From contig UGGN01000001.1 in NCBI GenBank assembly GCA_900450455.1, positions 868,001-932,000 of the forward strand: a DNA stretch of 64,000 nt, read 5' to 3'. Origin of the DNA: [Eubacterium] infirmum (GTDB lineage Bacteria > Bacillota > Clostridia > Peptostreptococcales > Anaerovoracaceae). The translations under genes and the position numbers were made by a program. The notes under the pieces are model-generated. The model saw nothing but the letters and a program-made list of their open reading frames with translations, had not been told where the DNA came from and did no database searches. Positions 31,548 through 35,073 of the stretch are shown one piece after another (the stretch's first letter is position 1; each line of letters begins with the position of its first letter).

Positions 31548-32876
31548 TTAATAAAGCATGCCGTTTAGAACTTGCTCGCATAGAAGAAGTCCTCCGCCAA
31601 TGCCAAGATGAGACTTCTCAATCACATCAATATAACCAAGGGAGGGGAGTGCTGTCTCAATACCGCTGAACCTTTTCCCCTTTGCTCTAAGCATGGCAAT
31701 GGTCTGTCCATCGGCAAAGACGAGCTCAGCATCTGTATCGAAAATGTTTTTCTTTAGTGCATCAGAAGAACCATGGTCATTTAGTATTTCTCTTAGCCTT
31801 GCTTCCTGCATAGCCAGCTCTTCATAGTTTCTTGTTTTGTCATCAAGATCTTTTCTTTCTACTATAGAAACAACATCGCAAGTCATGCCAAAATAGCTTG
31901 CCAAGAACCCAGTATAGCCAAGGCACTGAGATAGGCTGCCGTGCACGGCAAACTTAACACCCTTTGGACGCCCCGTAAGAGTGTGAACTCTCGAGAGATG
32001 TGCAAAGCACTTTGCTCTTGCTCGCTCACTTTGCTTCATATATGCTGTGATGTTTGAGCCGAGCTTTTCACAGACCCTCTGCAATAGTTCTTCCATTGCT
32101 CTAAAGCCGACCGGAAGTCCATCGCAGACGATGTAAGGCATATCAAAGCGCTCCGATAAAAGCTTTGCGGAATCAAGCCCGTATAAGCTGTCTACTACTA
32201 TATTAAGATCCGCGCGTGGAAGCTTTTCTATATCGCTTACGCTTGAACCGGCACAGAGGAAGCAGTTTACATCTATTTCGCAGAGTGCGAGGGCTTTCTG
32301 AAGCTCTTCTTTGTCTCCGGCGAAGTCCCTGTGGAAGATTGAAATCCCGAGTATATTTACGGATTTTCCTGCCGACTTTTCGCCGGGTTTAGCCAGCTTT
32401 TCAATGAGAATACGGCAGGCTTTGATGTAGCCGTCCCATATTGGCAAGGAATAGCCCGGGCTTCCTATGGAAATAATTTTACTCTCGTCCTTGCTTGCTT
32501 CCCTTGCGATTCTCTCTATGTCATCTCCGATTAGCGCTGCACCCGGAGTGTTTACGATGGCGAGAAGGTCAAAGTCGATTTCCTTTTCGAGAAAGGCTAT
32601 GACCTCGGAGAGCTTGTCCTCACTTCCATATACATAATCACGTTTATCGAGGAAGGTTGAAGGAACCCGTGGCTGTCCGAAGTACCAAAACTCAGGGTAT
32701 TCGAGCGGATCAAACTCGGGCTGCCTTATCATCTGATTATCCGATGTCGCCGAGTGATAGAACTTACAACCGGTAGGGCCGTTCATTAGGACAAGACCTT
32801 TTGATATGCCTTCAAAAGCGAAGACCAGCCCCGACATGCTATCCGGTGTAATACTTGTCAAATAATTTTCTGTCAT
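31548..32876 (-). CDS. Nitrogenase component-1-like protein (NifN/NifK-position subunit)
   Basis: This 442-aa protein belongs to the nitrogenase component 1 / oxidoreductase family (NifD-NifK-NifE-NifN, BchN/B). Family features are the Cys37 segment LMNGPTGCKFYHS near the N-terminus, NTPGAALIGDDIERIA, ISIGSPGYSLP and the closing glycine-rich IGGGLLLCEQVLNGML. Of the three cluster cysteines found in NifD or NifE, only Cys37 remains. The first position reads PDSMSGL and the third NTPGAAL. The start is set by GGAGAA before MTENYL and overlaps the upstream fusion gene by 38 nt. It is presumably the partner subunit of the fusion's component-1 half. The substrate is unknown. No terminator is obvious before the T-box promoter 34 bp downstream. 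Confidence 0.85.
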   Translation of the reverse strand: MTENYLTSITPDSMSGLVFAFEGISKGLVLMNGPTGCKFYHSATSDNQMIRQPEFDPLEYPEFWYFGQPRVPSTFLDKRDYVYGSEDKLSEVIAFLEKEIDFDLLAIVNTPGAALIGDDIERIAREASKDESKIISIGSPGYSLPIWDGYIKACRILIEKLAKPGEKSAGKSVNILGISIFHRDFAGDKEELQKALALCEIDVNCFLCAGSSVSDIEKLPRADLNIVVDSLYGLDSAKLLSERFDMPYIVCDGLPVGFRAMEELLQRVCEKLGSNITAYMKQSERARAKCFAHLSRVHTLTGRPKGVKFAVHGSLSQCLGYTGFLASYFGMTCDVVSIVERKDLDDKTRNYEELAMQEARLREILNDHGSSDALKKNIFDTDAELVFADGQTIAMLRAKGKRFSGIETALPSLGYIDVIEKSHLGIGGGLLLCEQVLNGMLY

Positions 32877-35073
32877 TGAGCCATTCTCCTTCCTTTGATT
32901 TACTGAATAGCCTCGACCATCGCTCAAGCATCTCAAGACCTGTGAAAAAGCCGTTATCCGGACACATAGGGATGGTGTCTGTGATACAGATCTGTTCGCT
33001 TACAGGCTCGTAGTTTGAGAGTATGATGTCAGGCTTAAGTTTTTCTATATCTGCGTTTCTTTCATCTTTGTCATAGTTCTCAACTACATCTATGCCATCT
33101 ATTTCATGAAGGGATGAGCGGAACCCCTCATCCTGGGAAAAGTTCAAAACGCATATTTTAACAATCTTCATTCCACAGTCCAGGGCAGCGTTCAGTATCC
33201 AGTCGAGTTCGTGATTATAGGTGACTATCATGAGCTTTTTGTTTTCGAGCTTTGGCTTAACTGCGTCGATTCTGCTTTGATAGATAAGCTCGTTTTCCGA
33301 TATTATCTTTTTTGCTTCGTTCACTGCATCAAAGTGTTCGCCTATGCCAAGAAGCCAATCTGCCGTTTCATTAAAGCCGATGGGAAACTGCTTTTCAAAG
33401 AAGCGTGCTCCATATTCCTTGCTGAAGAAATCCTCTAGAATTTTGCCGGTGTAGTCGCGATAGGCGAGCAGGTTTAGCTCTGCTGAGCAGAAATCGCGAA
33501 GTGATGCATAGCTGGTGTTACATAGAAAGCGGCAGTTTACGCTAATATTCATGCGAGCAAGGAAGGCGTTAAGCCTCTGGAAATTCATCTCTGTGTTTCT
33601 GGCAACAACTTTTTCAAAGACTATGTTTACAGTTCTTTTTCTCTTTTCTACATCTCTATCTATTATTTGCTTTGCAAGCGAGGTGTAGGCCATAAGCATA
33701 CCCTGAAGATAGTCGCCTGTGAGGTTTCCCTCAGCTTTTACTGTGACTATCCTTGTCTTTTCACTTGAAAGACTCAGCGCATCATCTATATCATCTCCGA
33801 TTATTCCGGAAGGGCAGGAACTGACAATCACGATGGCCGGTGGTGGCGAAGGGGAATCAAGAATTGCCTTAACTGTATTTAGGAGGTTTTCACTTCCGCC
33901 AAAGACCATATCGGTCTCGGTCATGTCCGTTGACAGCACGTTTGGTATCAAAGACGACGGTAAAATGTTTCCTCGCTCAAATAGCGTTCTTCTTCCTGCC
34001 GAACTTATGGTCTGTATGGATAGGTATGTGCAGCTCTTTGGAGAGTGTGCAAGAATCACGACATCTCTTAGATTTGAGCTCATAGTCATAGCGCCGTTAA
34101 AAGCGCAGCCATGGAGCGGTTCGTCCCTGATTACATTCTTTGATAGATAAGGAGCGGCGTAGTTCTCACCGCCATTACAATTATCACAAGCCGGATTTGA
34201 AACAGGAGCAAGAGAGATATTTGCTTCAGGCTCGCTTTGGTTTTCAGCCTTGGTAAGGGGCTTCTGATTTGATAGAATCAGTGCCTCCAGCTCTTCGTCC
34301 GTCAAAGGCAAAGCAGGGTAGTGACTTGGACCATCGCATATCCTTGCTGCGATATCCTTAAATATGTCAGCGACAGCATTTTCTTCGTTTTGGGTGAGTT
34401 CAAGTACGGTTTTATTGTCCCTTTCTGCCTGAGCGAAGATGTCGTCGCGAGGAATTCGTGCAAATACAGGCAGCTTAACTGCTTCTGCGAACTTATAAAC
34501 CCTGTCATCCTCGTTTTTGACATTTCGACTGTTATATAGTATTCCAAGGAGTCTTGGGCGATTTTCGTCGTAGTTTTGGATGCCTCGCAATATGTTGTTG
34601 GCAGCGTAGAGTGACATGTACTCACCGGAGGTGACAATAAAAATACTATCGGAATACTCTCTGCGTATCGGAACTGCAAAGCCACCGCATACAACATCGC
34701 CGAGTACGTCGTAGACTATCATGTCGTAGTTATCTTTGATGTGAAGTGTCTCAAGCAGATCAAAGGCAGTTATTATGCCTCGACCGGCGCAGCCGACACC
34801 GGGCTTTGGACCGCCTGCTTCTATGCACCCAATCTTGCCAAATCCCTCAAAGAGTATATCGCTTTTGCGGTACTCAAGTGGCGGTTTTGTCTTTATATAG
34901 TCCAAAACAGTAGGGATGGAAAGGCCACGCATCAAAAGCTTGGTAGAGTCGTGCTTAGGGTCACAGCCTATTTGAAGTATTCTTTTATTTTTCAGCGAAA
35001 GGGCAGCGGAAATATTTGCGCTTAAAGTCGATTTTCCTATGCCTCCCTTACCGTATACAGCAATCTGTTTCAT
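32839..35073 (-). CDS. Fusion of NifH-type Fe protein and nitrogenase component-1 subunit
   Basis: This single 744-aa protein joins two nitrogenase-type halves. Residues 1-265 are a NifH/BchL-like ATPase with P-loop GKGGIGKST (8-16), CDPKHDST (37-44), GGPKPGVGCAGRGI with Cys95, and DVLGDVVCGGFAVP with Cys129. The two cysteines match the ligands of the bridging [4Fe-4S] cluster (Cys97 and Cys132 in Azotobacter NifH). A linker of about 50 residues contains CDNC (296-299). Residues 318-744 are a NifD/NifE-like domain with three cluster-type cysteines, Cys323 (LHGCAFNG), Cys348 (SPKSCTY) and Cys420 (SSCPSGIIGDD). The ORF is continuous, so this is a true fusion. In known systems the Fe protein is a separate dimer that docks to component 1. 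Electron transfer to an unknown reduced product is inferred. Confidence 0.88.
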   Translation of the reverse strand: MKQIAVYGKGGIGKSTLSANISAALSLKNKRILQIGCDPKHDSTKLLMRGLSIPTVLDYIKTKPPLEYRKSDILFEGFGKIGCIEAGGPKPGVGCAGRGIITAFDLLETLHIKDNYDMIVYDVLGDVVCGGFAVPIRREYSDSIFIVTSGEYMSLYAANNILRGIQNYDENRPRLLGILYNSRNVKNEDDRVYKFAEAVKLPVFARIPRDDIFAQAERDNKTVLELTQNEENAVADIFKDIAARICDGPSHYPALPLTDEELEALILSNQKPLTKAENQSEPEANISLAPVSNPACDNCNGGENYAAPYLSKNVIRDEPLHGCAFNGAMTMSSNLRDVVILAHSPKSCTYLSIQTISSAGRRTLFERGNILPSSLIPNVLSTDMTETDMVFGGSENLLNTVKAILDSPSPPPAIVIVSSCPSGIIGDDIDDALSLSSEKTRIVTVKAEGNLTGDYLQGMLMAYTSLAKQIIDRDVEKRKRTVNIVFEKVVARNTEMNFQRLNAFLARMNISVNCRFLCNTSYASLRDFCSAELNLLAYRDYTGKILEDFFSKEYGARFFEKQFPIGFNETADWLLGIGEHFDAVNEAKKIISENELIYQSRIDAVKPKLENKKLMIVTYNHELDWILNAALDCGMKIVKICVLNFSQDEGFRSSLHEIDGIDVVENYDKDERNADIEKLKPDIILSNYEPVSEQICITDTIPMCPDNGFFTGLEMLERWSRLFSKSKEGEWLNDRKLFDKYYTG

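What the first reader, a model, noticed from the sequence alone, without database searches (positions are those of the whole stretch)
32839..35073. Natural fusion of a NifH-type Fe protein with a nitrogenase component-1 subunit
Seen: one uninterrupted 744-codon frame has a NifH half (P-loop, Cys95, Cys129) and a NifD/NifE-like half (Cys323, Cys348, Cys420) joined by a 50-residue linker with a CDNC motif. Known: in nitrogenase, DPOR, COR, CfbCD and other nitrogenase-like systems the reductase is a separate homodimer that binds and leaves component 1 in each electron-transfer cycle. Inference: a tethered reductase would change this docking cycle, with each component-1 heterodimer carrying half an Fe-protein dimer. 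None of the nifB, nifE/N, molybdate or F430/chlorophyll genes is near, so the reaction is probably not nitrogen fixation. This is my leading candidate for an undescribed system.
Basis: partly seen in the sequence, partly recalled or inferred. Interest (0 to 1): 0.93.

Follow-up and report, generated by a model that had tools for sequence, protein, structure and literature searches.

The report
Fused nitrogenase-like, B12-linked reductase
In 28 genomes of bacteria and archaea checked here the nitrogenase reductase (NifH) and a nitrogenase-like catalytic subunit are one protein, and because in many of them these genes sit beside vitamin B12 riboswitches and predicted B12-uptake genes, the enzyme is likely an ATP-driven reductase of B12-type molecules (corrinoids) and not a nitrogen fixer.

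Summary
It is no artefact: fused frames occur in 28 genomes. The fusion was mentioned once in print (Dos Santos 2012, 'data not shown') without a function. Nitrogen fixation is very unlikely: the FeMo-co cysteine is absent in 26 of 26 and the partner keeps one cluster cysteine (27 of 27), a '3+1' layout as recalled for chlorophyllide reductase. The new finding is the context. Cobalamin riboswitches lie within 5 kb of the pair in 12 of 27 loci (about 0.7 expected), transcobalamin-like DUF4430 domains in 10 of 18 genomes (0.49 expected). In one later-found genome the pair sits inside a riboswitch-headed ECF-transporter operon. I propose an ATP-driven corrinoid reductase, most likely making Co(I) corrinoid for adenosylation. 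The corrinoid link is well supported for the family; the reaction is inferred. A competing idea (replacement of CbiJ) was tested and refuted. In about 11 of 30 loci I saw no corrinoid feature, and the window's own nearest riboswitch is 11.4 kb away, so its assignment leans on relatives.

The parts
32839..35073 (-). NifH-NifD/E-like fusion gene, 744 aa
   Evidence: fused frames in 28 genomes
34270..35073 (-). Fe-protein (NifH) domain, residues 1-268: P-loop, Cys95 and Cys129
   Evidence: PF00142 2-268; invariant residues in 26 of 26
34123..34269 (-). Linker, residues 269-317; variable in length and sequence
32842..34122 (-). Component-1 (NifD/NifE-like) domain, residues 318-744; Cys323, Cys348, Cys420 and Cys514 invariant
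   Evidence: PF00148 323-707
31548..32876 (-). Partner NifK-like subunit, 442 aa, with a single conserved cluster cysteine (Cys37); start overlaps the fusion's end by 38 nt
35143..35439 (-). Cysteine-rich small protein (PF04071), 69 nt upstream; likely first gene of the operon. Next to the fusion in only 2 of 28 genomes
35474..35502 (-). Promoter-like site (TTGACA-17-TAAAAT) in front of the PF04071 gene; consensus match only
31222..31474 (-). T-box-like leader (72.6 bits, below the gathering score of 93) between the pair and the TrpB-like gene; suggests that TrpB-like is not part of the operon
46468..46611 (+). Cobalamin riboswitch (33.4 bits, gathering 31.5), 11.4 kb from the fusion
46861..50127 (+). 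1088-aa protein with a DUF4430 (transcobalamin-like) domain behind that riboswitch

Best explanation
The fusion and its partner likely form an ATP-driven, nitrogenase-like reductase of corrinoids (vitamin B12-type molecules) whose electron donor is tethered to its catalytic half. Shown: the fusion, the partner, the conserved cluster cysteines, the lack of the FeMo-co cysteine, the absence of any other NifH-family protein in 16 of 28 genomes, and the clustering of the family, well above chance, with cobalamin riboswitches and predicted corrinoid-uptake genes. Inferred: two fusion chains pair through their NifH halves to make one Fe-protein dimer with a [4Fe-4S] cluster; ATP hydrolysis drives electrons to a second [4Fe-4S] cluster held by Cys323, Cys348 and Cys420 of the fusion and Cys37 of the partner; a corrinoid sits where DPOR/COR hold their tetrapyrrole and FeMo-co would sit. 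Most likely step (inferred, least certain): reduction of imported Co(III)/Co(II) corrinoid to Co(I), with loss of the upper ligand, so that an adenosyltransferase can make the coenzyme.
For: Cobalamin riboswitches within 5 kb of the pair in 12 of 26 loci (25 genomes), 0.70 expected from each genome's own density, none of 200,000 simulations reached 12, maximum 7 (L125 scanned later, none, so 12 of 27). DUF4430 domains within 5 kb in 10 of 18 genomes, 0.49 expected, simulation maximum 6 (18 of the 28 genomes searched, those whose loci I had in genome coordinates). L174 (found after the hypothesis): riboswitch (34.6 bits, gathering 31.5), EcfT-like, double ECF ATPase, SLH/toroid protein, DUF4430 protein, fusion, partner and ECF S-like gene on one strand with overlaps or short gaps. 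L020: riboswitch about 165 bp upstream of the fusion, same strand. A PF01902 (DUF71/COG2102) gene directly upstream in 4 loci (Pfam checked in L128 only, others by BLAST cluster); that family has a predicted B12-salvage branch (PMC3541065, passages), whether these genes belong to it was not tested, the L128 one is below the Dph6 cut-off. CobO/CobA-type adenosyltransferase beside the L019 pair; CobN and FecCD beside L025. CbiD in 15 of 16 fusion genomes against 207 of 377 others in the order sample, Fisher p 0.0012, relatedness not corrected. FeMo-co cysteine position Ala (25) or Trp (1) in 26 fusions, no Cys at the next position either; partner Cys37 in 27 of 27. Fusion locus holds the only NifH-family protein in 16 of 28 genomes, both copies fused in one more.
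Against: No corrinoid-linked feature was seen near the pair in the fetched stretches of L125, L126, L130, L131, L139, L140, L023, L024, L027, L173 (only a cobW-family gene) and L175/L176, though not every neighbour was scanned; in the window itself the nearest is 11.4 kb away. L023/L024 neighbours look by eye like a Fur regulator and a zinc/manganese ABC transporter. Of 3 later-found loci only L174 has a riboswitch, 5.3 kb upstream of the fusion, so 0 of 3 by the 5-kb rule. Several positive loci come from close relatives or one genome (L133 and L136 both in G123; L137, L138 same genus), so the independent lineages are fewer than the counts. I saw an adenosyltransferase beside the pair in one locus only. 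The fusion genomes nearly all have the known pathway markers tested (CbiD, CbiJ), so no gap demands this enzyme. The ECF S-component's substrate is not identified; its L135 counterpart weakly matches the folate family, below cut-off. No structure could be predicted. Known adenosyltransferases manage with simple reductants (recalled), so an ATP-driven reductase is not obviously needed.
Confidence: 0.45

Rival explanations
1. The enzyme reduces the corrin (or another imported tetrapyrrole) macrocycle rather than cobalt, as DPOR, COR and CfbCD do with theirs, producing a modified, repaired or dismantled corrinoid.
For: Cluster layout and sequence fall between the tetrapyrrole-reducing and nitrogenase branches; the partner groups weakly (support 61) with BchB/BchZ; CobN-type chelatase next to the divergent member L025.
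Against: No modified corrinoid of this kind is known to me (recalled). The fusion does not replace the known ring reductase: CbiJ is present in the same 23 of 26 genomes as CbiD. The BchL, BchX, BchZ, CfbC and CfbD models score far below their cut-offs.
Confidence: 0.22
2. A B12-independent stand-in for some B12-dependent enzyme, switched on by riboswitches when B12 is short.
For: Cobalamin riboswitches also control isozymes of B12-dependent enzymes (PMC3766115, passages); L020 has a riboswitch directly before the fusion.
Against: The recurring neighbours are uptake- and salvage-type genes; inside L174 the pair is embedded between ECF transporter genes.
Confidence: 0.1
3. The pair serves another substrate and is near corrinoid genes in some lineages only because those genes share anaerobic genomic neighbourhoods.
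For: About 11 of 30 loci show no corrinoid feature; L023/L024 have metal-transport-like neighbours by eye.
Against: Two enrichment tests, the operon embedding in L174 and the riboswitch directly before the fusion in L020.
Confidence: 0.17
4. A genuine nitrogenase or nitrogenase cofactor scaffold.
For: Homology only.
Against: FeMo-co cysteine absent in 26 of 26, one invariant cysteine in the partner in 27 of 27; nifH, nifD and nifE models far below cut-off.
Confidence: 0.01

Closest known systems
Fused nifH-nifE-like + nifN-like arrangement noted by Dos Santos et al. 2012 (PMC3464626)
   Same: Same gene order and fusion, in Archaea, Firmicutes and Deltaproteobacteria (section 11 read whole).
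   Different: Reported as 'data not shown', with no sequence, cysteine pattern, neighbours or function for the fused form. Their remark on cobalamin reduction concerns single-subunit NflD next to cobyrinate a,c-diamide synthase (passages).
Chlorophyllide a oxidoreductase, COR (BchX + BchYZ)
   Same: Heterodimeric component 1 with no FeMo-co; three cysteines from one subunit and one from the other (COR ligands recalled; the COR paper is not held); acts on a tetrapyrrole.
   Different: Separate BchX; BchX model 200 bits against a cut-off of 331; linked to bacteriochlorophyll, not corrinoid.
DPOR (BchL + BchNB)
   Same: ATP-driven tetrapyrrole reductase; the partner profile matches BchB chains (1.3e-25).
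   Different: One cluster ligand is Asp in DPOR (PMC3464626), Cys here; separate BchL.
CfbCD (F430 pathway)
   Same: The H half scores best with the CfbC model (327 bits); metal tetrapyrrole substrate.
   Different: Below the CfbC cut-off of 402; CfbD is homomeric (PMC12552129, passages), here there is a distinct partner.
Methylthio-alkane reductase MarHDK (PDB 9d9u, 9fmg)
   Same: Partner's best solved-structure match is the 9d9u_C chain (1.2e-35; that this is MarK is recalled).
   Different: MarDK carries a P-cluster and an [Fe8S9C] cluster (PMC12552129, passages); the corresponding cysteines are missing here.
CobR, flavin corrin reductase of the aerobic pathway
   Same: Proposed product, Co(I) corrinoid (PMC7242693, passages).
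   Different: Flavin-dependent; no nitrogenase-type ATPase or clusters (recalled).

Membership tests
Mo/V/Fe nitrogenase (NifHDK) | FeMo-co cysteine ligand (NifD Cys275) | tested here: not met
   Position 537 is Ala in 25 and Trp in 1 of 26; 538, to which one of the two shown alignments would shift it, has no Cys either.
Mo/V/Fe nitrogenase (NifHDK) | P-cluster: three cysteines in each subunit | tested here: not met
   Three in the D half; only Cys37 of the partner is invariant (27 of 27); where the third would lie the partner reads PGAAL (by eye).
Mo/V/Fe nitrogenase (NifHDK) | Curated model cut-offs nifH 394, nifD 654 | tested here: not met
   312 and 115 bits.
Mo/V/Fe nitrogenase (NifHDK) | nifB and cofactor-assembly genes in the genome | not tested
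   No genome-wide nifB search was run.
COR (BchXYZ) | Three cysteines on one subunit plus one on the other for a [4Fe-4S] cluster | tested here: inconclusive
   The layout fits; COR ligands are recalled and the cluster is unmeasured.
COR (BchXYZ) | BchX and BchZ model cut-offs 331 and 529 | tested here: not met
   200 and at most 28 bits.
DPOR (BchLNB) | BchL cut-off 345; Asp as a cluster ligand | tested here: not met
   217 bits; Cys37 in the partner.
CfbCD | CfbC cut-off 402; homomeric CfbD, cut-off 268 | tested here: not met
   327 and 45 bits; a separate second subunit exists.
Nitrogenase-like (Nfl) superfamily | NifH-family ATPase plus Oxidored_nitro subunits without a full nitrogenase ligand set | tested here: met
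Corrinoid (B12) regulon | Cobalamin riboswitch or corrinoid-uptake neighbours above chance | tested here: met
   For the family. For the window's own locus only at 11.4 kb.
Corrinoid reductase | Corrinoid binding and ATP-dependent reduction | not testable with these tools
CbiJ substitute in de novo B12 synthesis | CbiJ missing where the fusion and CbiD are present | tested here: not met
   CbiJ in the same 23 of 26 genomes as CbiD.

The most novel reading that the evidence does not exclude
A corrinoid branch of nitrogenase-like enzymes, beside the chlorophyll (DPOR, COR) and F430 (CfbCD) branches: an ATP-driven B12 reductase in which the Fe protein is permanently tethered to component 1, so that the reductase dimer can only form between two fusion chains and the usual free docking cycle is replaced by an internal one.
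Probability: 0.42. Interest if true: 0.9.

Novelty: new variant of a known kind. Interest (0 to 1): 0.74.

Why it matters
[quoted passage not shown] A record named Eubacterium sulci ATCC 35585, a culture-collection strain, carries it.

Tried and rejected
1. CbiJ replacement. CbiD occurs in 23 of 26 fusion genomes, which suggested that the fusion replaces the precorrin-6A reductase; CbiJ is present in the very same 23. Rejected.

2. CDNC linker as a metal site: Cys in only 8 of 26 linkers. Rejected as a family feature.

3. TrpB-like neighbour as part of the operon: a T-box-like leader lies in between, and by eye the TrpB-like gene sits beside the pair only in the window and E. sulci loci; L126 and L139 have other, cysteine-synthase-like PLP genes close by (by eye; all in one mixed BLAST cluster). 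Rejected as a family feature.

4. PF04071 as a conserved partner: beside the fusion in 2 of 28 genomes, elsewhere in 16, absent in 10. Kept only as a local operon member.

6. Phylogenies are quick trees (SH-aLRT only) of a subset (17 of 26 D halves, 15 of 26 H halves, plus later-found and archaeal rows) with long CfbD and Bch branches; the placement among BchB/BchZ is weak.

7. Literature: searches showed listings of 4 to 20 of up to 2,244 papers; eight papers were opened, one section of one paper read whole and the rest as passages. None seen links the fused form to corrinoids; only open-licence PMC papers are held.
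Full report
WHAT IS THERE. On the minus strand of the window, 35439 to 31548, lie three genes read in one direction: a 98-aa cysteine-rich protein (PF04071), the 744-aa fusion, and a 442-aa partner. The gap before the fusion is 69 nt, and the partner's ATG overlaps the fusion's end by 38 nt. 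A promoter-like site precedes the first gene (such sites are also expected by chance), and a T-box-like leader separates the following TrpB-like gene, which is therefore probably regulated on its own. The fusion has Fer4_NifH at 2-268 and Oxidored_nitro at 323-707; the partner has Oxidored_nitro at 15-440.

IS IT REAL. Counting distinct genomes gives 28. G008 has a contig of the same length as the one that holds the E. sulci ATCC 35585 protein, so the window's genome belongs with an Anaerovoracaceae species. In the H tree 18 fused H rows and one archaeal H whose own gene is split lie on one side of a branch with support 100. In the D/K tree the 18 partners are one group (100) and the 16 bacterial D halves one group (99); three archaeal D halves and the unfused L051 stand next to them unresolved. 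This fits a single old fusion without proving it.

ACTIVE-SITE RESIDUES. In 26 of 26 fusions the P-loop lysines and serine, Cys95, Cys129, Cys323, Cys348, Cys420 and an extra Cys514 are invariant; in 27 of 27 partners Cys37 is the only invariant cysteine. The FeMo-co cysteine position is Ala (25) or Trp (1). So the predicted clusters are one Fe-protein-type [4Fe-4S] and one interface [4Fe-4S] held by 3+1 cysteines, as recalled for chlorophyllide reductase; no FeMo-co. NCBIfam models for NifH, NifD, NifE, BchL, BchX, CfbC and CfbD all stay below their cut-offs.

NO OTHER FE PROTEIN IN MANY. PF00142 at E <= 1e-20 was searched in 28 genomes (27 with an intact fused frame plus G416, whose frame is split; G816 not included). 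Sixteen have exactly one NifH-family protein, that of the fusion locus, and one more (G123) has two, both fused; the other 11 have further copies. In the 17 the Fe-protein dimer must be made by two fusion chains.

CONTEXT. Neighbours were listed for 27 loci. The window's own genome makes corrinoids, by its genes: one locus (L152) carries CbiK, CbiD, CbiG, CbiJ, CbiB and CbiA-type genes. Cobalamin riboswitches occurred in 13 of 26 non-window loci anywhere in the fetched stretch, and once in the window. Within 5 kb of the pair the count is 12 of 26 loci (25 genomes) against 0.70 expected from each genome's own riboswitch density, and none of 200,000 simulations exceeded 7; L125, scanned later, has none, so 12 of 27. 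DUF4430 lies within 5 kb in 10 of 18 genomes against 0.49 expected (the ten genomes reached through named records were searched but left out of this test). That DUF4430 is the transcobalamin-like domain of PMC1796856 (passages) is recalled. Both tests treat genomes as independent. Other corrinoid-linked neighbours: SLH-anchored DUF4430 or toroid proteins, PF01902 genes directly upstream in four loci (Pfam checked in one), CobO/CobA-type adenosyltransferase (L019), CobN and FecCD (L025), CbiQ and ECF genes (L135), CbiX (L018). By my own tally over these of 30 loci carry at least one such feature in the fetched stretch, 19 with the window's own at 11.4 kb; not every neighbour was scanned.

LATER-FOUND LOCI. 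After forming the hypothesis I looked at three fusion loci not used before (L173, L174, L175/L176). L174 is striking: riboswitch, EcfT-like protein (25% identity to the CbiQ-family protein of L135, no Pfam hit of its own), double ECF ATPase, SLH/toroid protein, DUF4430 protein, fusion, partner and an ECF S-like protein, all on one strand, several overlapping. The riboswitch is weak (34.6 bits, gathering 31.5) and 5.3 kb from the fusion, so by the 5-kb rule the score is 0 of 3. L173 has only a cobW-family gene; L175/L176 showed nothing.

CO-OCCURRENCE. CbiD, a marker of the anaerobic corrin pathway, occurs in 222 of 393 order genomes; 15 of the 16 fusion genomes in that sample (G273 counted) have it against 207 of 377 others (Fisher p 0.0012, not corrected for kinship). 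CbiJ is found in the same 23 of 26 fusion genomes as CbiD, so the fusion is not a substitute for the known ring reductase, and three fusion genomes (G308, 96% complete, and two MAGs) show neither, so the de novo pathway seems not to be required. This points to a step on finished or imported corrinoid.

MECHANISM. A nitrogenase-type ATP-gated reductase is suited to very low-potential electron transfer (recalled). [quoted passage not shown] the sentence there says 'aerobic' but stands in the anaerobic section. I therefore commit to corrinoid cobalt reduction as the likeliest reaction, with macrocycle reduction as the main rival. Both share the core claim, corrinoid as substrate, which I hold at about 0.67.

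PRIOR ART. Dos Santos 2012 noted the fused arrangement in one sentence with data not shown and, for other NflD proteins, wondered about cobalamin reduction. In the listings and passages seen I found no paper that ties the fused form to B12 (open-licence papers only). A corrinoid-starvation study of Dehalobacter (PMC4285132) does not mention nitrogenase (term count).

VERDICT. A real, recurrent, barely noticed branch of nitrogenase-like enzymes with a tethered reductase. The corrinoid link is statistically firm for the family and indirect for this window. On rechecking, the only odds changed are those of the core corrinoid claim, stated as 0.67 so that it agrees with the two explanations that contain it.

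Noticed in passing
window 2-2330 (+): Lysine 5,6-aminomutase alpha (cut by the window's edge) and a beta-type subunit with a B12-binding domain (PF09043, PF02310), by recall an AdoCbl-dependent fermentation enzyme: the organism itself likely needs coenzyme B12.
   Followed up: partly
window 46468-50127 (+): Cobalamin riboswitch followed by a 1088-aa DUF4430 protein; one of 13 cobalamin riboswitches over the cut-off in this genome.
   Followed up: yes
window 31222-31474 (-): T-box-like leader before a TrpB-like gene, below Rfam's gathering score.
   Followed up: partly
window 43658-44283 (-): By eye a Doc/Phd-like toxin-antitoxin pair; not tested.
   Followed up: no
L051:1952-7082: Unfused H, D and K genes beside what look (by BLAST cluster and by eye) like FecCD and BtuF-type transport genes; next to the fused family in the trees: a possible ancestor-like arrangement.
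   Followed up: partly
L132, L134, L136: MoxR/DUF58/BatA-like gene run near the pair (by eye; DUF58 confirmed by Pfam only for an L026 protein); the link to corrinoid uptake is unexplained.
   Followed up: no
L023, L024: Fusion pair followed by what looks by eye like Fur plus a Zn/Mn ABC transporter, with no corrinoid gene seen in the fetched stretch.
   Followed up: no
G417 (L027 genome): Thermoplasmata MAG with two NifH-family matches in frames of fusion length (722 and 698) and no cobalamin riboswitch match.
   Followed up: no
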